A stretch of DNA of 64,000 nt, taken from Desulfocarbo indianensis. Lineage in GTDB: Bacteria > Desulfobacterota > Desulfarculia > Desulfarculales > Desulfarculaceae. The stretch is taken from NCBI GenBank assembly GCA_001184205.1, contig LBMP01000002.1:85444-149443 (forward strand). Reading direction: 5' to 3'. Positions 31,894 to 61,930 of this stretch are shown here, piece after piece (position 1 is the first letter of the stretch; every line of letters starts with the position of its first letter). The translations under genes were made by a program, and so were the position numbers. The notes beneath the pieces were generated by a model. That model ran no database searches. It had not been told where the DNA came from and saw only the letters and a list, made by a program, of their open reading frames with translations.

Positions 31894-31980
31894 GCCTGGG
31901 TGGTGGAACTGGTAGACACAGGGGACTTAAAATCCCCAGCCTGTAAAGGCGTGCGGGTTCGACTCCCGCCCCGGGCACCA
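31894..31980 (+). tRNA. tRNA-Leu (anticodon UAA)
   Basis: An 87-nt class II tRNA with a complete cloverleaf. Acceptor GCCTGGG (31894-31900) pairs with CCCGGGC. The anticodon stem GGGGA/TCCCC encloses loop CTTAAAA with TAA at 31928-31930. A variable arm is present, the T arm is GCGGG-TTCGACT-CCCGC, and CCA is encoded. Its 3' part, from the anticodon loop on, is repeated at 61547-61601, so this gene is the integration site of the island. The acceptor 3' strand differs from the displaced copy, meaning the present 3' end was supplied by the island. Confidence 0.97.
31926..31962. repeat. island left attachment site (attL) in the tRNA
   Basis: 37 bases from the anticodon loop to the T loop are identical to 61547-61583. 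Similarity continues to the CCA end with three mismatches. The integrase gene starts its 3' end 16 bases beyond the tRNA. Confidence 0.9.
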
Positions 31981-31995
31981 AATAAAACCAAGGGG

Positions 31996-33099
31996 TTAGC
32001 CTTCATGGCTGGCCCCTTCGTTTTGTGCCAACATCAAGTTGTGTGCCTTTTTTGTGCCTGCCGCTTCGGCTGGTGTGCCCGGCGAATCGCCTAAGTATCG
32101 CTCAACGCTAAGCGCGGCCTGCTCCAAGTCCCTTAGGTTCACGATGTCGTATCTGTCAAAAACCGATCTGGTCTTGTGGCCGCTGATTGCCATGGCTACC
32201 CGCTCCGGCACCCCGGCCCTGACCATGTTGCGAACCGCGGTCCGACGCAGGTCATGAAACAGCTTGCCTTGGATACCCGCCTCTTTGCATGCCCGCCTCC
32301 ACACCACACGGAAGTCTTTAATCGGGTTACCGTTACGGTGGAACACATAGAGACAGCCTAACTGCCGGTTGCGGAACTGCTCCTTGAAGACATCCACAAG
32401 CTCTCTGTCCAGGAAGATGGTGCGGCCCTCGTCGTTCTTGGTGGTCCCCGCTTCCAGCCTCACTACCGCACGATTGAGGTCAACCTGATTCCAGGTTAGG
32501 CCGGTGATCTCACCGACTCGCCAGCCGGTCTTGTAGGCAAAGGTCACCATCCCCTTCAGGTATGGCGGAAGGGCTTCGCGCAAGGCCAGGAACTCGTCAT
32601 GCTCGAAGAACCCCTGCCGGACGTTGCGCTCGGCCAATAGGGGCACGTACGGCGTCCCGCTTACCTTGGGCGGAGTGCAGCGGCTGGCTAGGTTGAAGGC
32701 CCTCTTGAGAGCTGCCAATTCCCTATTGATGGTGCCGTTAGCCGCTCCCTGGTCCATGCGGTGGGATATGTATTGCTTGACCCTGGTAGTGGTGATCTTG
32801 CTTGCTGGGCAGTTGCCGAAAAATGGCAGGAGGTGCAGCCTCACAATGCGTTCGGCCTTGGCCAGCGTTTTCTTGGCATTGAGCTTGTAGTCCAAAATAT
32901 AGTCTTGAGCGAGCTCGGCGAATCCGATCTTGTCATAATAGATTTCCGGCTTTTTGCCTCTGGCGACCTCCCCCTCTCTGAGCTTCAGTAGCTTAACTGC
33001 AACAGCTTTTTTCGGGCTGCCTGTTGATTCTCGGAATTTCTGGCCGCCTACATAATATTGAATCGAATAATTATTTCCACGTTTAGTAATAGTGCCCAT
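31996..33099 (-). CDS. tyrosine recombinase (island integrase)
   Basis: A 367-residue phage-type integrase. It has an N-terminal arm-binding region (TKRGNNYSIQYYVGGQKFRES), a SAM-like core-binding domain (about 60-165) and a catalytic domain. Catalytic residues are visible: Arg in TGWRVGEITGL, HDLRRTA, the His in SGHKTRSVFDRY and the nucleophile Tyr in that last motif. Its 3' end lies next to the tRNA-Leu, the classic arrangement. The ~35 C-terminal residues after the Tyr are variable. Confidence 0.95.
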   Translation of the reverse strand: MGTITKRGNNYSIQYYVGGQKFRESTGSPKKAVAVKLLKLREGEVARGKKPEIYYDKIGFAELAQDYILDYKLNAKKTLAKAERIVRLHLLPFFGNCPASKITTTRVKQYISHRMDQGAANGTINRELAALKRAFNLASRCTPPKVSGTPYVPLLAERNVRQGFFEHDEFLALREALPPYLKGMVTFAYKTGWRVGEITGLTWNQVDLNRAVVRLEAGTTKNDEGRTIFLDRELVDVFKEQFRNRQLGCLYVFHRNGNPIKDFRVVWRRACKEAGIQGKLFHDLRRTAVRNMVRAGVPERVAMAISGHKTRSVFDRYDIVNLRDLEQAALSVERYLGDSPGTPAEAAGTKKAHNLMLAQNEGASHEG

Positions 33100-33289
33100 G
33101 GCGATTACCTCGGCAGGTCTTACACTTCCACCGCCGCCTCACCACCTCGGAAGGTCGCATAACCCTCGGAGGGCTTCCAGGAGCGCCGATCATTGCCAGC
33201 GCGGGCAACCGGCGGGCCGGGGAGCAAGCGCCGCTCTGAGAGGCCCTGAGCGTCTCGGCGTGAAAACCAGCCATTTATGGGGATGCCCT

Positions 33290-33541
33290 TCACTTCTCTT
33301 GCTTCTCGCCGCTGACGGCCTCGAAGCCGCTCTTTATGATCTGCCCGCCGTAGGGCTTGCCTACCAGCACCCCGATGGCGATGCAGGCCAGGGCCACCAG
33401 GGTAGGACCATGGTTCGTGCCGTCCGGCAGAGCCAGGGCTTTCCTGACATCCGCATAAATAGCCTCGAACTCGTACTGTTGCTCGCGGCATATGGCCTCG
33501 AATTTCTTCAGAAGCTCCTCGGCGTTGGGTTCTTGTGACAT
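33290..33541 (-). CDS. small single-pass membrane protein (paralog A)
   Basis: An 83-residue protein. The N-terminal half is helical and charged (EELLKKFEAICREQQYEFEAIY). It is followed by VRKALALPDG and a membrane helix (PTLVALACIAIGVLVG), then QIIKSGFEAV. ATG 33541 follows AAGGAG by six bases. It is clearly related to the 43542-43820 product, sharing VRKALAL and CIAIG. Role unknown; it lies in the integrase operon. Confidence 0.7.
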   Translation of the reverse strand: MSQEPNAEELLKKFEAICREQQYEFEAIYADVRKALALPDGTNHGPTLVALACIAIGVLVGKPYGGQIIKSGFEAVSGEKQEK

Positions 33542-33569
33542 TGTTTGCTCCTTGTGCTGGTGTAGGCCG

Positions 33570-33971
33570 CTACCACCCGCCCTCATTGTTGGCGGACTTC
33601 AGCCACGCCCTACGCATGGCCTCGACCTCATCCGGGACCGGGATACGGGGCGCATGAAAGGACCTGGGCGGGACCGTGGCCATGGCCCGGTCGAACATGC
33701 GCTTCATGGACAGCAACTCGCTGTTGACTTGATCGTTATCAGCCCCTTGTCGGAAGCGGTGGAGGACATATCCGCGTATCACTTCGCAGGAGATATCCAG
33801 CACCGGCATGCCGTTGAAGTACGGCTCCAGGTGCTCACCGGCTTCCTGGTCTGTGAGAAAAACTTCGGCCAGTTCCTCGAAGCCAGGCTGAACAATCCCG
33901 ACCTGGGAGCATGAAGCATGTAACAGGCTTTCATGGGATTGGTCCTGTTGCTGTTTGAGCTTTGAGCCCAT
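33570..33971 (-). CDS. stand-alone integrase core-binding-like protein
   Basis: A 133-residue protein whose central part (HLEPYFNGMPVLDISCEVIRGYV, then NDQVNSELLSMKRMFDRAM) resembles the SAM-like core-binding domain of tyrosine integrases. No catalytic domain follows. It may be a DNA-binding accessory or a decayed integrase. The start (ATG 33971 or TTG 33989) is unsure because ribosome sites are weak. Confidence 0.55.
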   Translation of the reverse strand: MGSKLKQQQDQSHESLLHASCSQVGIVQPGFEELAEVFLTDQEAGEHLEPYFNGMPVLDISCEVIRGYVLHRFRQGADNDQVNSELLSMKRMFDRAMATVPPRSFHAPRIPVPDEVEAMRRAWLKSANNEGGW

Positions 33972-34415: not shown

Positions 34416-34640
34416 TCAGCAGGTAATGATCTTGTTGTTCTGGATCAGCTTCTCCAGATCACGGACATCAAGCATCTGCTTGCGGCAGCCCGGGAAGCGT
34501 ATGAACGGCACATCGCCGGCCCATATGCGGTCCCGCATGGTCCAGATGGATATGCCCAGGTACTCGGCCGCTTCCCTTACTCCGAGCAGCCTCTTGCCCC
34601 GCGCGTTGTCTCCCGCGTCTTTCTTCTTTGTGTTAGGCAT
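34416..34640 (-). CDS. excisionase-family helix-turn-helix protein
   Basis: A 74-residue protein with a MerR-like winged helix: LLGVREAAEYLGISIWTMRD, then VPFIRFPGCRKQMLDVRDLEKLI. Such proteins are recombination directionality factors or small regulators. The start at ATG 34640 has GGAGG four bases upstream. Its place between integrase-side genes and the helicase fits an excisionase of this island. Confidence 0.8.
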   Translation of the reverse strand: MPNTKKKDAGDNARGKRLLGVREAAEYLGISIWTMRDRIWAGDVPFIRFPGCRKQMLDVRDLEKLIQNNKIITC

Positions 34641-34676
34641 GTCGCCTCCGGTGCGATTAGGTTTAGTAGGCAAAAA

Positions 34677-41373: not shown

Positions 41374-41518
41374 AGGTGGCACGCAAGGAGGAACAAGCCG
41401 AACCTGTGCAGGCTCATGCGTCCTCGCGCCCGCCCCCCTTTCCCCGGCCGGAGCAAGATCGGCGCTCCTCGGGTGTCTGAGGGCCTTGCAGAATCGTGAT
41501 GTTTGGTTGGGCGGGACC

Positions 41519-42196
41519 TTATCGGGTGAGAATACGGTGAATCTGAACCGGACGCCACTGCAAGCCGTCCTTGGTGGGGATGCCTTCGGAGTTGAGCCGG
41601 TCGGCTATGGACTGCAAGGTCATGCCCTTCAGGCCGTTCCTGCGCCTACGCCGCATAGCCCGAATCCGGCGGATGACAGCCTGTTCGTCTTCAGTGTCGC
41701 CGTAGGGCCTGCGTCCTTCGCATCGACCGTTTAGCTGCCGGGTCTTGTCACGGCCCTTCTTGAGCCTACGGACCAACTGGTTTTTCTCCAGTTCAGCAAA
41801 GACGCCCTGGACCTGAACAAGGGCTTTCTTCAGTGGATCAGCTTGGACGGCAGCGGTGATGTCCTCTTGTGTCCTTGCAGAGATCAAACTGACACCCTTG
41901 CTGGCCAAGTAGACAAGCAGGGCCTCTTGAATCCTGAGTTCCCTGGCAAGTCGGTCCATGCTCTCGACTATGATGGTGCGGACGCCGTTGCCGAGAACAG
42001 CCGTCATCATCTCTTGGAAGGCTGGACGTTCGGTTTCATCAGCGGTGCCCGAGACGCCTTGTTCCTTGAAGATTTCGACGACCTCAATCCCGGCCTCCTT
42101 GGCATAGGCTTGGATGGTGTCAAGTTGCCGATCAAAGCCGTGACCCTGGACCTGGCCGACCGTGCTGACTCGAAGGTAAGCGAAGGCTTGTGACAT
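41519..42196 (-). CDS. serine recombinase (resolvase/invertase family)
   Basis: A 225-residue site-specific recombinase. The catalytic Ser is in AYLRVSTVGQ near residue 11. SMDRLAREL and the long E helix (ALVQVQGVFAELEKNQLVRR) follow. The C-terminal helix-turn-helix includes LKGMTLQSIADRLNSEGIPT. Length and layout match small resolvases rather than large serine integrases. It may resolve cointegrates or invert a segment within the island; no crossover site was identified. Confidence 0.9.
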   Translation of the reverse strand: MSQAFAYLRVSTVGQVQGHGFDRQLDTIQAYAKEAGIEVVEIFKEQGVSGTADETERPAFQEMMTAVLGNGVRTIIVESMDRLARELRIQEALLVYLASKGVSLISARTQEDITAAVQADPLKKALVQVQGVFAELEKNQLVRRLKKGRDKTRQLNGRCEGRRPYGDTEDEQAVIRRIRAMRRRRRNGLKGMTLQSIADRLNSEGIPTKDGLQWRPVQIHRILTR

Positions 42197-42555
42197 AGTT
42201 TATCTCTTTGAAATAACTCGCCTTTAAAAAAAGTATACCCTGTCCCAGCGCAGTCGGAAAGCTGAAAAGTTTTCGTTAACTTCAGAAAAAGAAAAATATT
42301 TCAACTAGATAGCTTCCTACGGCCTCCTAGATGAGCCCATTTCTCTAGTGCCCGCATAGAACTTGTATTTTTAGGGTTAAGCGTCTAGCAGCCGGGCTTT
42401 AATCGACAAAGGGGCTCCTCGCCCCAAGATGCCAAATCAGCCAGCAATGCGCTGTTATTAGCCTGTTTGGCTGAACATGGTTCGATTTAGGCCGCACTAT
42501 CGGCCTGGGGACAACATCGGCTAATGGCGGTTGATTAGAGGAAAAGGAGGTGGGC
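42197..42555. other. intergenic gap upstream of the base-modification-like gene
   Basis: A divergent gap of about 360 bases with an AT-rich part near 42197-42310. It should hold promoters for both flanking genes. No firm -35/-10 pair and no small gene were found. Confidence 0.4.
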
Positions 42556-43515
42556 TTGTCGGACGAAATTTTGCGGCTCTATTGGGGTTGGGCCACAGAG
42601 AGACAGAACATCTTTTACGCCAGGCTGGCCGGGCGGCCTGAGCCCTACACGGATGACCCGATCCTGCGGGAGTTCAAATTCACCAATGCCTATCGCGCAT
42701 CGGATCGGGTTAGCCAATATCTGATACGCAATGTGATCTATCCCCAGGATGGAATAGAGTACACGCCTGAAGACATGGTGTTCCGCATCTTGCTGTTCAA
42801 GCGGTTCAATCTGATAAGCACCTGGCAGTGGATGGAGAAGCACTTCTTCCCGATCACGCTGGAGGGTTTCGACTTGGACCGTTATGTTCAGGTTTTCGAC
42901 CAGTTGCGACAGCAAGAAAGGCCGATCTACAACACTTGTTACAATGCGGGCCGAGTGCAGGGACCGTACCCGGACAAGCACGGCAATCACCTGTTGGCCT
43001 TGAAGCAGGCTGAGCAATCCGGTTTATTCCAGCGCATACTTGAGGCACCAAGTCTACGGCGGGTTGCCATGCTCATACAGGATATGCCCGGCGTGGGCTC
43101 TTGGCTGGCCTATCAGTTCGCCATTGACCTGAACTACTCGCCTTACATCAACTTCAGTGAGAACGACTACGTGGTATGCGGGCCTGGTGCCAAGAGCGGC
43201 ATCACCAAATGCTATGGTGACATACCCTCCAGCGGCTATGAGGACGCAGTCCGGCATATGGTTGACTCTCAAGACTGGCTGCCCGCCCAATACGGGTATG
43301 ACTTCAAGGACCTGTTCGGCAGGCCGCTTCGCCTGATCGACTGCCAAAACATATTCTGCGAACTAGCCAAATATACAAGGATTTCTCACCCCCATCTGAG
43401 CGACAAACGCAAGACCGTCCGGTTCCACTTCGCCTATGACCCTGGCAAACCCAAAATCGAGCCGTTCTATCCGCCCAAGTGGGGCCTGGATACGTCCAAT
43501 CTGCCCCCGGCGTAG
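42556..43515 (+). CDS. putative thymine base-modification enzyme (aGPT-Pplase / 5-hmdU kinase helical domain family)
   Basis: A 319-residue protein. The N-terminal part (RQNIFYARLAGRPEPYTDD, then FKFTNAYRASDRVSQYLIRN) closely resembles the alpha-glutamyl/putrescinyl thymine pyrophosphorylase and HMUDK helical-domain family. That family was first described from phages with hypermodified thymine. A DNA-glycosylase-like helix-hairpin-helix follows as QDMPGVGSWLAYQFAIDL near residues 177-194. The start is TTG 42556, five bases after AGGAGG; a GTG at 42550 would lie in the ribosome site. Substrate and activity are inferred only; the partner enzymes usual in phages are absent. Confidence 0.65.
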   Translation: MSDEILRLYWGWATERQNIFYARLAGRPEPYTDDPILREFKFTNAYRASDRVSQYLIRNVIYPQDGIEYTPEDMVFRILLFKRFNLISTWQWMEKHFFPITLEGFDLDRYVQVFDQLRQQERPIYNTCYNAGRVQGPYPDKHGNHLLALKQAEQSGLFQRILEAPSLRRVAMLIQDMPGVGSWLAYQFAIDLNYSPYINFSENDYVVCGPGAKSGITKCYGDIPSSGYEDAVRHMVDSQDWLPAQYGYDFKDLFGRPLRLIDCQNIFCELAKYTRISHPHLSDKRKTVRFHFAYDPGKPKIEPFYPPKWGLDTSNLPPA

Positions 43516-43541
43516 CCATTTGCCTGAAAGGAGTATCATCG

Positions 43542-43820
43542 ATGCCGCTTAAGCCGCAGTCTCTTGAGGAGTTTTTCGAGCAGCAGGAGAGCTTGACCAG
43601 GGAACAGTCCTTCGAGCCTGGTGAGATTCACCGATATGTCCGCAAGGCGCTCGCTTTGGTGAACGGCAACGCTGCCCCCTTGGTTTTGGCCTTGGTCTGT
43701 ATCGCCATAGGTATGATGGTGGGAGAGCAAACGGGCCGGGCTATCATCCAGGATGGGTACCGGGCAGCAAGGGCGAGGCGTAAGGAGGCGGGAAGGAAAG
43801 AAATCGTCAATAAAGAGTAG
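43542..43820 (+). CDS. small single-pass membrane protein (paralog B)
   Basis: A 92-residue protein related to the 33290-33541 product. It has a helical N-terminus (SLEEFFEQQESLTREQ), the shared VRKALALVNGN, and a membrane helix (APLVLALVCIAIGMMVGE) with a Lys/Arg-rich tail. AAGGAG lies nine bases before ATG 43542. It follows the base-modification-like gene by 26 bases and probably shares its transcript. Confidence 0.7.
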   Translation: MPLKPQSLEEFFEQQESLTREQSFEPGEIHRYVRKALALVNGNAAPLVLALVCIAIGMMVGEQTGRAIIQDGYRAARARRKEAGRKEIVNKE

Positions 43821-54100: not shown

Positions 54101-56413
54101 ATGACGGCTGTTATTAAGTATTATGAGGGAATTGACTCGATTGCCGTAATCGGCAACTACCTGCCCCGCCAATGCGGCATCGCGACCTTCACCACGGATC
54201 TGGTTGAAGGCTTATCAGCGGAAGCCCCCGAAATCTTCTGTTGGGCGGCGGCCATGAATGATAAGCCGGAAGGATATCCATATCCTGAAAAAGTGCGCTT
54301 TGAGATCAACCAGAACAAGTTGGCCGACTATGGCATCGCATCTCAATTCATCAATATCAGCCAGACGGATATTGTCTGCTTGCAGCACGAATACGGCCTT
54401 TTCGGAGGTCCGGCCGGCAGCCACCTTTTAAAATTATTAGGTGATCTGCGCATGCCGCTGGTGACCACTTTGCACACGGTTCTGAAAGATCCCGAGCCGG
54501 AATATCACAGCGTCATGTGCAAGCTCGCCGAGCTGTCCGACAAACTGGTGGTGATGAGCCACAAGGCTGTGGGTTTCCTTAAAGACATTTATGCGGTGCC
54601 CGAGGAGAAAATAGTCTTTATCCATCACGGCATTCCGGATACGCCGTTTATTGATTCAAGTTTCAACAAAGACAAGTTCGGTGTGGAAGGCAAAAAGGTG
54701 CTGCTTACCTTCGGCTTGCTTTCCTCAAACAAGGGAATTGAAGATGTGCTTCAAGCGCTTCCGGCGGTTATAAAAAAACACCCTGACTTGGTCTATATTA
54801 TTCTGGGCGCAACCCATCCTCATGTATTGAAGAGGCAGGGGGATGCATACCGTATCATGCTGCAACAGCTCGTGCGCCAACTGAATATCGGCGAGCATGT
54901 CATTTTTCAAAACCGCTTTGTCGAGTTGAGAGAGTTGTGCGAGTTTCTCGGCATCGCCGACATCTACGTAACCCCTTATCGCGATGAAGCGCAGATTACC
55001 TCCGGCACCCTTGCCTATGCCATGGGCACAGGCAAAGCCATCATTTCGACACCTTATTGGTACGCCACGGAAATGCTTGCCCAAGATCGAGGCCGGCTCG
55101 TACCTTTTCGCGATCCGGATGCCATGGCAAAACAAATTACCGCACTTTTGGACAATGACGGCGAACGCAACGCCATGCGCAAGAAAGCCTATAAGTTCAG
55201 CCGTAAAGCGGTTTGGAAGGAAGTATCCCGAAAATATTTGCAGGTTTTTAGTGAAGTGCGGCAAAACCGCACCCTGAACCCGCGTCCCCGCCATTCCTAT
55301 ATTGAAAGCATCAAGGCCATCACGAATTTCGATCTACCGGAGATCAAACTCGATCACCTGAAAACCTTAACCGATGATACCGGCATCATACAACATGCCA
55401 ACTTCACCATTCCCAATCGCACCCATGGGTACTGCACCGATGACAATGCCAGAGCGCTGCTGGTTGCCGCCATGGGTCAAAGATATATGCCCACGAGCGG
55501 CTTGGGATTCGATTATCTCAGCGGTCATTATCTCGGGTTTCTTCAGTATGCCTTTAACGAGGAGACCGGACGCTTTCGCAATTTCATGACTTATTCGCGG
55601 CAGTGGATGGAGGAGATCGGGTCCGAGGATTCGCATGGCCGAGCGCTTTGGTGCCTTGGAAAAGCGGTGGTGTTTTTTGATGATCCCGGGCACCTCGCAA
55701 TGAGCACAACCCTTTTCAAAAAGGCATTGAGAGCTGTGGATAATTTTCGATCGCCTCGCGCCATCGCTTTTTGTCTGGTGGGTATTAATGCCTACCTGCA
55801 TGAATTTTCCGGCGACAGAGAGGTTAGCAAGATGCGGGATCTACTTGCCGGCCGGCTTTTCAATCAGTTTAAAAAGAATGAAACGAGCGATTGGCCCTGG
55901 CTCGAGAACGCTTTGAACTATGCTAACGGAAAATTGCCCCATGCCCTGCTGCTGTCCGGCCACGGCATGCAACGCAGCGATATGATCGAAATGGGGCTCG
56001 ACTCCCTCAAGTGGCTGCTTGGCATGCAAACCGAAGACAACCACTTCGTACCCATCGGCAGCAACGGTTGGTATGAAAAAAGCGGAACCAAGGCACGGTT
56101 CGACCAACAGCCCGTCGAAGCCCAAGCCATGGTTGGAGCCTGTGTCGAGGCTTTCAATATTACCCGTGACCACGCATGGTTTGAGAATGCGGTAATGTGC
56201 CTTAATTGGTATCTTGGGCACAACGACCTGAACATGCCGCTCTATGATCCCAAGACCGGCGGCTGCCGGGACGGGTTGATGGCCGACGGCATCAACCAGA
56301 ATCAAGGCGCCGAATCGACCCTTGCCTGGCTGCTCTCGCTGCTCACCATGCAAAAGCTATATGCCGATGAGATTTTAACGCAGTCATCGTCCCAAGCTGC
56401 CGGTTCGGCTTAA
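54101..56413 (+). CDS. glycosyltransferase family 4 with C-terminal helical toroid
   Basis: A 770-residue protein. The N-terminal ~400 residues are a GT-B glycosyltransferase: LPRQCGIATFTTDLVEGL, HHGIPD and the nucleotide-sugar region IADIYVTPYRDEAQITSGTLAYAMG. The rest is rich in Trp, His and Gly (DDNARALL, WPWLENALNYANGKLPHALL) and resembles the alpha/alpha toroid of mannan-related enzymes. It opens the GT-GT-GH130-GH130 operon. It starts at ATG 54101; the ribosome site is weak. Confidence 0.85.
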   Translation: MTAVIKYYEGIDSIAVIGNYLPRQCGIATFTTDLVEGLSAEAPEIFCWAAAMNDKPEGYPYPEKVRFEINQNKLADYGIASQFINISQTDIVCLQHEYGLFGGPAGSHLLKLLGDLRMPLVTTLHTVLKDPEPEYHSVMCKLAELSDKLVVMSHKAVGFLKDIYAVPEEKIVFIHHGIPDTPFIDSSFNKDKFGVEGKKVLLTFGLLSSNKGIEDVLQALPAVIKKHPDLVYIILGATHPHVLKRQGDAYRIMLQQLVRQLNIGEHVIFQNRFVELRELCEFLGIADIYVTPYRDEAQITSGTLAYAMGTGKAIISTPYWYATEMLAQDRGRLVPFRDPDAMAKQITALLDNDGERNAMRKKAYKFSRKAVWKEVSRKYLQVFSEVRQNRTLNPRPRHSYIESIKAITNFDLPEIKLDHLKTLTDDTGIIQHANFTIPNRTHGYCTDDNARALLVAAMGQRYMPTSGLGFDYLSGHYLGFLQYAFNEETGRFRNFMTYSRQWMEEIGSEDSHGRALWCLGKAVVFFDDPGHLAMSTTLFKKALRAVDNFRSPRAIAFCLVGINAYLHEFSGDREVSKMRDLLAGRLFNQFKKNETSDWPWLENALNYANGKLPHALLLSGHGMQRSDMIEMGLDSLKWLLGMQTEDNHFVPIGSNGWYEKSGTKARFDQQPVEAQAMVGACVEAFNITRDHAWFENAVMCLNWYLGHNDLNMPLYDPKTGGCRDGLMADGINQNQGAESTLAWLLSLLTMQKLYADEILTQSSSQAAGSA

Positions 56414-56423
56414 AGGATTGCCC

Positions 56424-57443
56424 ATGCGCATTGCCATGCTTTCGTCCATCGCCTGGCGCACGCCACCACGGCATTATGGGCCTTGGGAAAACGTGGCCTC
56501 TCTTTTAACAGAGGGGTTGGTGTCGTGCGGTGTGGATGTAACCTTGTTTGCAACCGCGGATTCGCAAACCAGCGGTACCCTGCATGCGATTTGTCCGACG
56601 GGCTATGAGGAAGATTCTTCCTTGATACCAAAAGTATGGGAGTGCCTTCACATTTCAGAACTCTTCGACCATGCCGGCGAGTTTGACATTATCCACAACA
56701 ATTTTGATTTTCTGCCCCTGACCTATACCGGCCTGACCACCACACCGGTGGTGACCACCATTCACGGTTTCTCATCGCCCGGGATTCTTCCCGTATATAA
56801 GAAATACAACAATAAAGTCTTCTATGTTTCCATCAGCGATGCCGACCGGTCGCCGGACCTGGATTATATTAAAACCATCCATCATGGCCTTGATATCCAG
56901 CAGTTTGATTTTCAGCCTGACCCGGATGATTACTTGCTCTTCTTCGGGCGCATTCACCATGACAAGGGTGCCCGGCAAGCCATTGAAATCGCCAGGGCCT
57001 GCAAGAAGAAGTTGATTTTGGCCGGCATCATCCAGGACCGGGCTTACTATGACCAATATGTAGCCCCTCACCTTGACAACGGCCAGGTGGTTTATGTGGG
57101 CAGCGTCGGACCAGTTGAGCGCAACCGGATGCTGGGCAACGCCTGTGCGCTATTGCACCCAATACAGTTTGACGAGCCTTTCGGCCTGTCGGTTATCGAA
57201 TCCATGGCCTGCGGCACGCCCGTGGTCGCCTTTGATCGCGGCAGCATGCCTGAACTCATCGAAAACGGTAAAAGTGGCTTTTTGGTCGAAAACCTGGACC
57301 AAGCCATTGAGGCGGTTGCCCGTATCAATGAGATTGACCGCGCATATTGCCGCCGCCATGTTGAACGGCATTTCACCGCCGGGCGCATGATCAAGGAATA
57401 TATACAAGTATATGAAACGATTCTTGGCTCTGAGATACTTTAG
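56424..57443 (+). CDS. glycosyltransferase family 4
   Basis: A 339-residue GT4 enzyme: MRIAMLSSIAWRTPPRHYGPW at the N-terminus, then FFGRIHHDKGARQAIEIA, and the nucleotide-sugar motif PFGLSVIESMACGTPVVAF. The signature EPFGLSVIE has the EX7E-type glutamates. The start is ATG 56424 with AAGGA six bases upstream. It follows the first glycosyltransferase by 10 bases. Confidence 0.92.
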   Translation: MRIAMLSSIAWRTPPRHYGPWENVASLLTEGLVSCGVDVTLFATADSQTSGTLHAICPTGYEEDSSLIPKVWECLHISELFDHAGEFDIIHNNFDFLPLTYTGLTTTPVVTTIHGFSSPGILPVYKKYNNKVFYVSISDADRSPDLDYIKTIHHGLDIQQFDFQPDPDDYLLFFGRIHHDKGARQAIEIARACKKKLILAGIIQDRAYYDQYVAPHLDNGQVVYVGSVGPVERNRMLGNACALLHPIQFDEPFGLSVIESMACGTPVVAFDRGSMPELIENGKSGFLVENLDQAIEAVARINEIDRAYCRRHVERHFTAGRMIKEYIQVYETILGSEIL

Positions 57444-57510
57444 AATGGCCTCGAAAAATTCGGAAAAAGACAGCAGCCGGAATGGGCGCAAAAGGTTTTA
57501 AAAAACCGTT

Positions 57511-58452
57511 ATGAAATCTCACAATCCAATAATCGCGCGTTTTAATAAAAACCCTATACTGACAAGAAATGATGTGCCGTATCCGGTGGCTACGGTTCAC
57601 AATGCGGGGGTTGTGAAGCACAACGATCGTTACATCATGCTCTTCAGGTCGCATCTGCTAAACGGGCGCTCCATCATCGGCAGGGCGGACAGCGAGGATG
57701 GTTTTTCATTTGCGGTTCATCCCAAACCTTTTCTTATACCTTCAACAGACACGGTTTTTGCCGAGTATGAAGAGTTCGGAGTCGAAGACCTTAGGATTTG
57801 CCCTGTAGAGGGAGATTACCTGCTGACCTATAGCGCCTATTCCCGTCACGGCGTGCGGATCGCCCTGGCGCGCACCAGGGATTTTGAAAAAGTGGAGCGC
57901 GTCGCGCTGATCACTCAGGCCGATCTCCGCAACGTAGTTGTTTTTCCTGAAAAATTTGGCGGCCGCTATGTGCGTTTGGACCGGCCGCATTCCGAAATAT
58001 CGCCCTGGTCGATCTGGATTTCATATTCCCCCGACCTAGTCCACTGGGGGGATTCCCGGGTGATTATGAAGCCGGTTGCCTATCATTGGGATGAAATGAA
58101 AATCGGGCCCGGCGCGCCGCCATTTAAAACCGATAAGGGCTGGCTTCATCTTTACCATGGCGCCTTTAAGACCATGGCTGGAGCGGTATATCGGCTCGGA
58201 GCGGCCCTGCATGACCTTGATGATCCGGCAAACATTATCGGCGTTTCCGACCAATGGATATTGCAGCCCGAGGATCCTTGGGAGGTAAATGGTTACGTGC
58301 CCAATGTTGTATTCACCTGCGGCGCCGTTCCCGAAGACGACGGCACCGTAAAAATATACTGGGGCGGCTCGGATACGGTAATGTGCGTCGGCACGGCCGT
58401 CATTGATGACTTGGTGTCACTCTGCCTCTCCGTTGCCCGGCCGCCTATGTAG
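57511..58452 (+). CDS. GH130 glycoside phosphorylase (mannosyl type)
   Basis: A 313-residue five-bladed beta-propeller enzyme. FGVEDLRICP near residue 90 carries the catalytic Asp, and KIGPGAPPF with the YHG-type WLHLYHGA binds phosphate and sugar. GH130 enzymes reversibly phosphorolyse beta-mannosides to mannose-1-phosphate. Length matches the short (GH130_1/2) forms. It is the third gene of the operon. Confidence 0.88.
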   Translation: MKSHNPIIARFNKNPILTRNDVPYPVATVHNAGVVKHNDRYIMLFRSHLLNGRSIIGRADSEDGFSFAVHPKPFLIPSTDTVFAEYEEFGVEDLRICPVEGDYLLTYSAYSRHGVRIALARTRDFEKVERVALITQADLRNVVVFPEKFGGRYVRLDRPHSEISPWSIWISYSPDLVHWGDSRVIMKPVAYHWDEMKIGPGAPPFKTDKGWLHLYHGAFKTMAGAVYRLGAALHDLDDPANIIGVSDQWILQPEDPWEVNGYVPNVVFTCGAVPEDDGTVKIYWGGSDTVMCVGTAVIDDLVSLCLSVARPPM

Positions 58453-58581
58453 ATGCTCATGGCCGGATAATCGCATACCGGGAAATCAATTTCCAGGTTA
58501 GGCGGAAATTGATTTCTAACAGGATGAAAAAACAGACGATGCAGCGTGTTAATAATCAATCGACACCAAGGACAAAATAAT

Positions 58582-60060
58582 ATGGCCGCAAAAAAGTATC
58601 CAGAGCTAAAAGTAAAAAGGAAAAAGAAAAAAATTTCGGGAGACGCTTCACGCGTAATAACCCGCTCTAATATTCCCAGTAACACGCAGCGCATAACCAA
58701 AATCATTGGGCGCATAGCAGACCTGCCCGACACGGCGGCCGAAGATCTTCTCACCCAGATAATGCTCGATTTTTCCGAGCGCCACAAAGACATCGGGCGC
58801 GTTTTTGAAAATCATCTTAATGAGGTGAGAGACTATGTCCCTCTGGATGCCGTGCTAAGCGAGACGAAAATGGCTCTCATCGGGGCCTATTTCACGATGG
58901 AGTACTCCATTGAGTCGACTGCCCTTTTTAACCCTTCCATCGTCCTTCACCCTGACCAGAGCGATCTGGAAAAAGGCAGCTTGCGCTTTATCATGAGCTT
59001 GCGGGCAATCGGCGAAGGTCATATTTCCTCCATTGTTTTCCGCAGCGGCATCCTTTGCCGGGATAATACGTTTATCTTCGACCCGGTCAGCGATTATGTC
59101 GAAAAGGCGGACATCCACTTGGACCAGGTTTACGACCGGCATCTCTTCCATCTGAAGCTCAACGAGATGGATGCCTGCGATGAGGTGACAACTCATCTTC
59201 TGGGTCAGCTGCCAGCAAAATTCACCTATTATGAACTAAAAGAAAAAATTGAAGCGCTTCGTTCAAAAACCGTTTTTCCCCAGCAGCGCCAGAACAGAAC
59301 CTTCGAGACCATATTCTGGCTTGCCAACTCCAATTATGAGGTTAATTTCCGGCCCGATCACCGAATATCCGAACGGGTTATCTTTCCTGTTTCGAAAAAC
59401 GAAATCAAAGGAATTGAAGACGCCCGGTTCGTACAATTTTTTGATAACAACGGGGAGGTCACCTATTATGCAACCTATACGGCATATAACGGTTTCGCAA
59501 TCCTCCCGCAATTGATTGAAACAAAGGATTTTGTCAAATTTAAGGTTATTACGCTCAACGGCAAAGCAGTAAAAAACAAGGGCATGGCTCTTTTCCCGCG
59601 AAAAATCGGCGAGCGTTATGCCATGCTCTCGCGCCAGGACGGCGAAAATAACCACATCATGTTCTCGGACAATATCCATTTCTGGCAAGAGTCCCAAATC
59701 ATCCAGGAACCTAAATATCCTTGGGAATTCATCCAGATCGGCAACTGCGGATCACCCCTTGAAGCCGATGAAGGCTGGATTGTGCTCACACACGGCGTCG
59801 GGCCCATGCGTCAATATTGCATCGGCGCCATGCTGCTTGATCTTGAAAATCCGGCAAAAGTCATTGCCCGCCTTGAAGAGCCGTTGCTTGCACCGCTTGA
59901 GGAAGAGCGCGAGGGGTATGTCCCCAATGTCGTTTATACCTGCGGTGCGATCTTTCATAACAGCGACCTGGTCATTCCCTATGGCATGTCTGATATCAAT
60001 TCCGGTATCGCAACCGTTGCTGTCAAGGATTTGCTTAACCATATGCGCGCAGTGGTTTAG
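58582..60060 (+). CDS. GH130 glycoside phosphorylase, long form
   Basis: A 492-residue GH130 relative with a Lys-rich N-terminus of about 25 residues and an extra helical segment of about 180 residues before the propeller. GIEDARFVQFF carries the catalytic Asp, QIGNCGSPL stands where the short enzyme has KIGPGAPP, and GWIVLTHGVG matches the phosphate motif. ATG 58582 with AAGGA nine bases upstream. It may act on a different linkage from its neighbour. Confidence 0.85.
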   Translation: MAAKKYPELKVKRKKKKISGDASRVITRSNIPSNTQRITKIIGRIADLPDTAAEDLLTQIMLDFSERHKDIGRVFENHLNEVRDYVPLDAVLSETKMALIGAYFTMEYSIESTALFNPSIVLHPDQSDLEKGSLRFIMSLRAIGEGHISSIVFRSGILCRDNTFIFDPVSDYVEKADIHLDQVYDRHLFHLKLNEMDACDEVTTHLLGQLPAKFTYYELKEKIEALRSKTVFPQQRQNRTFETIFWLANSNYEVNFRPDHRISERVIFPVSKNEIKGIEDARFVQFFDNNGEVTYYATYTAYNGFAILPQLIETKDFVKFKVITLNGKAVKNKGMALFPRKIGERYAMLSRQDGENNHIMFSDNIHFWQESQIIQEPKYPWEFIQIGNCGSPLEADEGWIVLTHGVGPMRQYCIGAMLLDLENPAKVIARLEEPLLAPLEEEREGYVPNVVYTCGAIFHNSDLVIPYGMSDINSGIATVAVKDLLNHMRAVV

Positions 60061-61546: not shown

Positions 61547-61601
61547 CTTAAAATCCCCAGCCTGTAAAGGCGTGCGGGTTCGAGTCCCGCCCTAGGCACC
61601 A
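61547..61601. repeat. island right attachment site (attR), displaced tRNA-Leu 3' end
   Basis: 55 bases from the anticodon loop to CCA match the tRNA-Leu gene, with 37 identical bases then three mismatches. The upstream half of the tRNA is missing, so it is not a gene. Island length between the repeats is 29,621 bases. Confidence 0.92.
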
Positions 61602-61930
61602 GTTAATTGGTTGAGTGAAAGTCTCACACACGAATCTTGCCACAAGACGGTTTTTCGTTCTTTTGGTAGCACCCTGTGCCGGATAAATTGGTTAAGGCAG
61701 GTGATGTGAGATAATGAGTTGTTGGCTTAATTAGAGATTGATCGCCCTGAATCTGCCCTTTTTGTACGAGACAAAGGTAAATCAGAACTTCGAGCCGGCT
61801 CCATCATATCCCACAAGACCGACGTAATATTAAAAAGTATTCACACCCTACTTTTGCTCTGTCTCTCCGGCTTTGGACCGCTTAATGACAAAATTCTCTC
61901 CCCTTGAGAAGGCCGCTGCGCCAGAAGCCT
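61602..61930. other. intergenic gap after the island
   Basis: Chromosomal DNA between attR and the outer membrane factor gene. No gene or clear promoter is seen. The 61848-62090 frame overlaps the next gene's 3' end and is not supported. Confidence 0.4.

What the first reader, a model, noticed from the sequence alone, without database searches (positions are those of the whole stretch)
42556..43820. Thymine base-modification-like gene in a cellular island with a small membrane partner
The 319-aa product resembles the aGPT-Pplase/5-hmdU DNA kinase helical family known from phages with hypermodified thymine, but here it has no modification partners nearby. It is co-directional with a single-pass membrane protein and divergent from a serine recombinase. 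It may act in defence, in anti-defence or as a DNA glycosylase.
Basis: partly seen in the sequence, partly recalled or inferred. Interest (0 to 1): 0.68.

Follow-up and report, generated by a model that had tools for sequence, protein, structure and literature searches.

The report
Lone thymine-modification-family gene on island
A bacterial mobile island carries, twice in the same genome, a lone member of the protein family that phages use to decorate the DNA letter T, without any of the partner genes that normally go with it, so it is a real but modest new example of a family increasingly linked to antiphage defence.

Summary
ORF 42556-43515 (319 aa) is a full-length, high-confidence PF18723 HMUDK_hel protein (E 5.5e-91), followed by a 92-aa single-span membrane protein and divergent from a serine recombinase. 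It lies on a tRNA-Leu integrative element (attL/attR 31926/61547, 29.6 kb). The recombinase/HMUDK/TM module occurs a second time in the genome, and both copies are under purifying selection (dN/dS 0.14). The predicted fold is all-helical and most resembles the HhH glycosylase superfamily: DUF2419, the phage 5-PmdU glycinyltransferase PUGT, and HhH-GPD DNA glycosylases. The protein lacks the P-loop kinase of true 5-hmdU DNA kinases, and no kinase, thymidylate synthase, MazG_C or other partner is nearby. The membrane gene is not a conserved partner: it was found only in this genome, and two of its four copies sit beside integrases. Elsewhere the family sits in a widespread cellular cassette (ACP, HTH, ImmA, TS-like, HMUDK with or without kinase, MazG_C/TS/radical SAM) in at least 9 phyla. 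A 5-hmdU-kinase domain is experimentally implicated in E. coli defence (PMC13092281). Best reading: an orphan, mobile HMUDK_hel that recognises or flips 5-substituted uracils and acts in antiphage conflict. The reaction is unproven. New member of a known kind.

The parts
42556..43515 (+). stand-alone HMUDK_hel (PF18723) gene, 319 aa, TTG start
   Evidence: Pfam E 5.5e-91; AF2 pLDDT 80, pTM 0.81
43084..43098 (+). helix-hairpin-helix motif MPGVG (residues 177-181)
   Evidence: alignment; same register as LPGVG of the host's own EndoIII-type protein
43159..43161 (+). E202, 44 of 48 family members; lies 21 residues after the hairpin Gly, where HhH-GPD enzymes have the catalytic Asp (+20 in two host proteins)
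   Evidence: register argument, inferred
43339..43380 (+). DCQN-FCE-KY-R motif (residues 262-275); C268, E269 and K272 invariant in 48 of 48
43542..43820 (+). 92-aa single-span membrane protein, element-specific
41519..42196 (-). short serine recombinase, only two copies in the genome, both beside HMUDK_hel
42197..42543 (.). intergenic region between divergent genes, 89% identical in the two copies
41379..43759 (.). duplicated module (recombinase, HMUDK_hel, TM), 87% nt identical to the G000:C1 copy (L023 8655-11034)
31894..31980 (+). tRNA-Leu(UAA), integration target
31926..31985 (+). attL direct repeat
61547..61606 (+). attR direct repeat, 92% identical
31996..33099 (-). tyrosine integrase of the island
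   Evidence: Phage_integrase 6.2e-24
33290..33586 (-). paralogue of the TM protein beside the integrase (43% identical)
34416..34673 (-). excisionase-like HTH protein of the element
   Evidence: HTH_17 / Tn916-Xis, weak

Best explanation
The gene encodes a functional, kinase-free HMUDK_hel protein carried as cargo of a tRNA-Leu integrative element. Its all-helical HhH-glycosylase-like domain most likely binds DNA, flips out a 5-substituted uracil (5-hydroxymethyl- or 5-phosphomethyl-dU type, as found in thymine-hypermodified phages) and recognises or processes it, to the cost of an invading phage. It works either with a nucleotide kinase supplied in trans or by its own base chemistry at conserved residues (D191, E202, the DCQN-FCE-K motif). 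The serine recombinase and the small membrane protein are most likely mobility and element genes, not partners in chemistry. Shown: family, fold class (moderately), conservation of the motif residues, mobility, second copy, purifying selection, lack of partners nearby. Inferred: substrate, reaction, antiphage role.
For: PF18723 full-length. Twelve residues universal in 48 diverse members, phage PaMx11 gp50 included, are all kept. Model pLDDT 80, pTM 0.81; nearest solved folds DUF2419 queuosine salvage enzyme Z 10.9, phage 5-PmdU glycinyltransferase PUGT Z 10.2, HhH-GPD DNA glycosylases Z 8-10; nearest viral models are 5-hmdU DNA kinase helical domains. In PaMx11 a P-loop kinase (gp49) and the helical domain (gp50) are separate neighbouring genes beside PUGT and TS, so the helical domain can be a separate chain. 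Two copies in the genome at dN/dS 0.14, no stops. Sporadic distribution, 3 of 297 phylum genomes, and presence on plasmids and phages fit a mobile conflict gene. Cellular relatives sit with CapH/CapP-like HTH-ImmA, ThsB-TIR/Nmad2 and viperin-like radical SAM genes, and a 5-hmdU kinase domain and a thymidylate synthase were newly validated in E. coli defence systems (PMC13092281).
Against: No kinase, TS, MazG_C or other partner in the island, and none of TS-like270, PF18722 or PF18748 found in the genome (these searches had no positive control). No recognised defence genes were seen among the island genes scanned. The fold match is at Z of about 10, below the level at which helical folds are unambiguous, and Foldseek alone gives E of 0.4 or worse. 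No activity is known for a lone HMUDK_hel.
Confidence: 0.4

Rival explanations
1. It is a counter-defence or DNA-protection gene of the mobile element or an associated phage: it helps mark or shield element DNA, as HMUDK_hel does in phages with hypermodified thymine.
For: 416 phage records carry the family; the gene is in a mobile element next to a recombinase.
Against: No enzyme that would make 5hmdU or decorate it is in the element or was found in the genome, so there would be nothing to act on in element DNA.
Confidence: 0.15
2. It is an HhH-type DNA glycosylase that excises hypermodified thymine from phage DNA, a Brig-like effector on a different fold.
For: HhH glycosylase-superfamily fold; MPGVG hairpin, and E202 at the +21 register of the catalytic Asp; glycosylase defence against modified thymine is known in principle (Brig2, cited in PMC13160076).
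Against: E instead of D at that position; no PF00730 match, and no profile match to the host's EndoIII-type enzymes; E202 is lost in several phage members; the family is normally kinase-linked.
Confidence: 0.2
3. It is an orphan left over from a cellular cassette, carried along with the recombinase and drifting or repurposed without catalytic role.
For: All cassette partners are missing; long branch in the tree; a few nearly invariant positions changed (A128C, F183W).
Against: dN/dS 0.14 between copies, no stops, motif residues intact.
Confidence: 0.15
4. HMUDK_hel and the small membrane protein form a dedicated two-gene system (sensor or effector with membrane pore or tether).
For: Same order in both copies; TM gene conserved, dN/dS 0.145.
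Against: TM homologues essentially only in this genome; two of four copies lie beside integrases without HMUDK; absent from about 50 other HMUDK loci.
Confidence: 0.1

Closest known systems
HMUDK_hel, PF18723 (5-hmdU DNA kinase helical domain; aGPT-Pplase clade 1 in phage annotations)
   Same: full-length match with all universal residues
   Different: no P-loop kinase fused or adjacent, unlike the kinase-helical fusions (about 570 aa) or PaMx11 gp49-gp50
Cellular ACP/HTH/ImmA/TS-like/HMUDK cassette (found here in 24 loci; a 5-hmdU kinase domain and a TS were validated in E. coli defence, PMC13092281)
   Same: same HMUDK_hel domain, 38-44% identity
   Different: window locus has none of the other genes and forms its own branch with its sister copy
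PUGT, phage PaMx11 5-PmdU glycinyltransferase (ADDT, PF18724)
   Same: similar predicted fold, Z 10.2 over 219 residues
   Different: different Pfam family and no sequence-profile match
DUF2419 queuosine salvage enzyme
   Same: similar predicted fold, Z 10.9 over 220 residues
   Different: 10% identity; substrate and genomic setting differ
Brig1-type antiphage DNA glycosylases (PMC11078745)
   Same: possible shared logic: acting on modified phage bases
   Different: Brig1 matches uracil-DNA glycosylases; the window model is all-helical with an HhH hairpin

Membership tests
HMUDK_hel PF18723 | profile match above gathering score over the whole model | tested here: met
   305.3 bits against 25, positions 2-280 of 281
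HMUDK_hel PF18723 | residues universal in diverse members (R16, F42, N44, R47, D50, D191, G209, G211, G215, C268, E269, K272) | tested here: met
   all present, 48-sequence alignment
bifunctional 5-hmdU DNA kinase | P-loop kinase domain fused or encoded next door | tested here: not met
   no GxxxxGK[ST] in the protein; no kinase gene in the neighbourhood
bifunctional 5-hmdU DNA kinase | kinase subunit elsewhere in the genome (PF18748) | tested here: inconclusive
   no hit, but no control genome rang either
phage thymine hypermodification pathway | TS-type hydroxymethylase, kinase, ADDT or PLP enzymes nearby | tested here: not met
   none in the island genes scanned by Pfam and by cluster comparison
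cellular HTH/ImmA/TS-like/HMUDK cassette | HTH and ImmA and TS-like gene beside HMUDK_hel | tested here: not met
   none within 6 kb of either copy; TS-like270 not found in the genome (no positive control)
HhH-GPD DNA glycosylase superfamily | HhH-GPD fold | tested here: inconclusive
   Z 8-10 to many members, below the helical-fold caution level of about 13
HhH-GPD DNA glycosylase superfamily | PF00730 sequence match | tested here: not met
   no Pfam hit; profile comparison with two host HhH-GPD loci gives nothing
HhH-GPD DNA glycosylase superfamily | catalytic Asp about 20 residues after the hairpin | tested here: inconclusive
   Glu (E202) at +21, conserved 44 of 48; D to E may or may not be active
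HhH-GPD DNA glycosylase superfamily | base excision activity | not testable with these tools
   needs biochemistry
Brig1-type defence glycosylase | uracil-DNA-glycosylase fold | tested here: inconclusive
   model has 13 helices and no strand, and UDG chains are not among the listed PDB matches; absence from a list is no proof

The most novel reading that the evidence does not exclude
A lone, kinase-free HMUDK_hel protein is itself a base-acting antiphage enzyme (glycosylase or base transferase) that attacks hypermodified thymine: phage base-decoration machinery turned into a single-gene defence effector carried on an integrative element.
Probability: 0.15. Interest if true: 0.7.

Novelty: new member of a known kind. 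Interest (0 to 1): 0.38.

Why it matters
The helical domain of 5-hmdU DNA kinases has, to my knowledge, no assigned activity of its own. A kinase-free copy kept under purifying selection in two islands of one genome, with no modification partners nearby, is a clean test of what that domain does alone. The survey also shows that the same domain sits in a cross-phylum cassette with CapH/CapP-like regulators and Thoeris-type TIR/Nmad2 genes, linking phage thymine hypermodification enzymes to bacterial immunity.

Tried and rejected
Membrane partner as conserved pair: rejected (no hits in plasmids or phages; 1 weak hit in 297 genomes). PADLOC and NCBIfam gave no family for the HMUDK protein. Sequence search of solved structures found no relative (the aquaporin and gp120 rows are chance). 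Brig1 as family: its paper describes a match to uracil-DNA glycosylases. Stand-alone HMUDK_hel served by MazG_C as kinase source: 11 of 19 stand-alone against 2 of 10 fused loci, Fisher p 0.11, not significant. The first synonymous-divergence test had misaligned frames for HMUDK and integrase and was redone with protein-guided alignment. No Rfam element other than the tRNA. Promoter and terminator scans were no better than shuffles. Papers on PUGT, and the 2015 nucleotide-conflict survey, were not held.

Full report
OBSERVATION. The ORF, its coordinates and its neighbours are as described. The best start is TTG 42556 behind AAGGAGG, giving 319 aa. PF18723 (HMUDK_hel) matches over its whole length at 5.5e-91. 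The phage family phrog_2396 also matches, at 1e-53. Two further genes were checked: the 92-aa protein at 43542-43820, with one hydrophobic span, and the divergent serine recombinase at 41519-42196.

ISLAND. The gene lies in an integrative element: tRNA-Leu(UAA) 31894-31980, tyrosine integrase 31996-33099, excisionase-like HTH 34416-34673, and a 60-bp direct repeat at 31926 and 61547. G+C falls from about 0.65 left of the element to 0.36-0.58 across 33-60 kb. The 41379-43759 module (recombinase, HMUDK_hel, TM) and the integrase end (31924-33904) recur in a second element on contig C1 at 86-87% nt identity (L023). Synonymous divergence of HMUDK_hel (0.47) is higher than that of recombinase (0.32, z 2.9) and integrase (0.30, z 3.7), while about 200 bp at the start of the TM gene are identical. 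This looks like allelic mosaicism. dN/dS is 0.14 for HMUDK_hel, so both copies look functional.

THE MEMBRANE GENE. Four clear homologues exist, all in this genome; two follow HMUDK_hel and two sit by the integrases. None was found in plasmids, in phages or in the other HMUDK loci, and only one weak hit came from 297 genomes of the phylum. It belongs to the element, not to a conserved HMUDK pair.

FOLD. AlphaFold2 with 15 sequences gives pLDDT 80 and pTM 0.81, all helical. Structural neighbours are DUF2419 (Z 10.9), phage PUGT (Z 10.2) and HhH-GPD DNA glycosylases (Z 8-10). Foldseek alone gives only weak scores, for OGG1-type chains; in the viral library it returns 5-hmdU DNA kinase helical domains. 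An HhH hairpin MPGVG is present. E202 falls at +21, against +20 for the catalytic Asp of the host's own two HhH-GPD proteins. This is a register argument, since no coordinates could be compared.

FAMILY CONTEXT. HMUDK_hel occurs in 416 phage and 21 plasmid records, but in only 3 of 297 genomes drawn from the window's phylum. Fused P-loop (Thymidylate_kin) versions of about 570 aa and stand-alone versions both exist. In PaMx11 a P-loop kinase gp49 and helical gp50 are separate genes near PUGT gp46 and TS gp51. Cellular relatives mostly sit in a cassette of ACP, HTH, ImmA, a remote TS homologue (hhalign 97%), HMUDK, then MazG_C, TS, radical SAM or dCTP deaminase (24 loci from Elusimicrobiota, Verrucomicrobiota, Planctomycetota, Acidobacteriota, Nitrospinota, Pseudomonadota, Cyanobacteriota, Actinomycetota and Archaea among others). 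The HTH and ImmA score against CapH and CapP models, and radical SAM against viperins. The window locus has none of these, and the TS-like gene was not found in the genome (no positive control). In the tree the two copies of this genome form a long branch of their own.

LITERATURE. DefensePredictor (PMC13092281) reports validated E. coli systems that contain a 5-hydroxymethyluracil kinase domain and a thymidylate synthase, newly implicated in defence, and lists aGPT-Pplase and MazG-C among predicted, untested defence domains. Whether its tested system is the cassette seen here could not be checked. Brig1 is matched to uracil-DNA glycosylases (PMC11078745); Brig2, against modified-thymine phages, is cited in PMC13160076.

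MECHANISM AND VERDICT. Shown: family, fold class (moderate), intact motif residues, mobility, selection, absence of nearby partners. Inferred: a base-flipping, 5-substituted-uracil-recognising protein acting against phages, with a kinase in trans or by its own chemistry (0.4). The glycosylase reading (0.2), element protection (0.15), orphan without activity (0.15) and a two-gene TM system (0.1) remain. Statements on phage pathway chemistry beyond the tool results rest on general knowledge of 5-hmdU DNA kinases. Overall it is a new member of a known kind, of modest interest alone.

Noticed in passing
L010 3722-4879; L019 4856-5984; L026 3527-4660; L032 1650-2794: A Thoeris ThsB-type TIR gene followed by an Nmad2 (PF18753) gene sits beside or near HMUDK_hel in four unrelated genomes (Acidobacteriaceae, Parabacteroides, Gloeothece, Sinorhizobium); a possible nucleotide-modification-linked Thoeris variant.
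   Followed up: partly
L003-L038 (24 loci): Cross-phylum cassette ACP, HTH, ImmA, remote thymidylate synthase homologue (about 270 aa, no Pfam hit), HMUDK_hel, then MazG_C, TS, radical SAM or dCTP deaminase.
   Followed up: partly
L022 5974-10661; L029 5974-11221: HMUDK_hel directly between a DnaQ-type exonuclease gene and dnaE on two sphingomonad plasmids.
   Followed up: no
window 41379-43759 against L023 8655-11034: HMUDK_hel is more divergent at synonymous sites than the flanking recombinase, while about 200 bp at the start of the TM gene are identical: allele mosaicism inside the module.
   Followed up: yes
L043 5456-7969: 837-aa viral protein with HMUDK_hel at the C-terminal end, beside TS and DnaE-like genes; N-terminal part not examined.
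   Followed up: no
window 54101-60060: Two group-1 glycosyltransferases and two GH130 mannooligosaccharide phosphorylases in the right half of the island, an unusual sugar-metabolism cargo.
   Followed up: no
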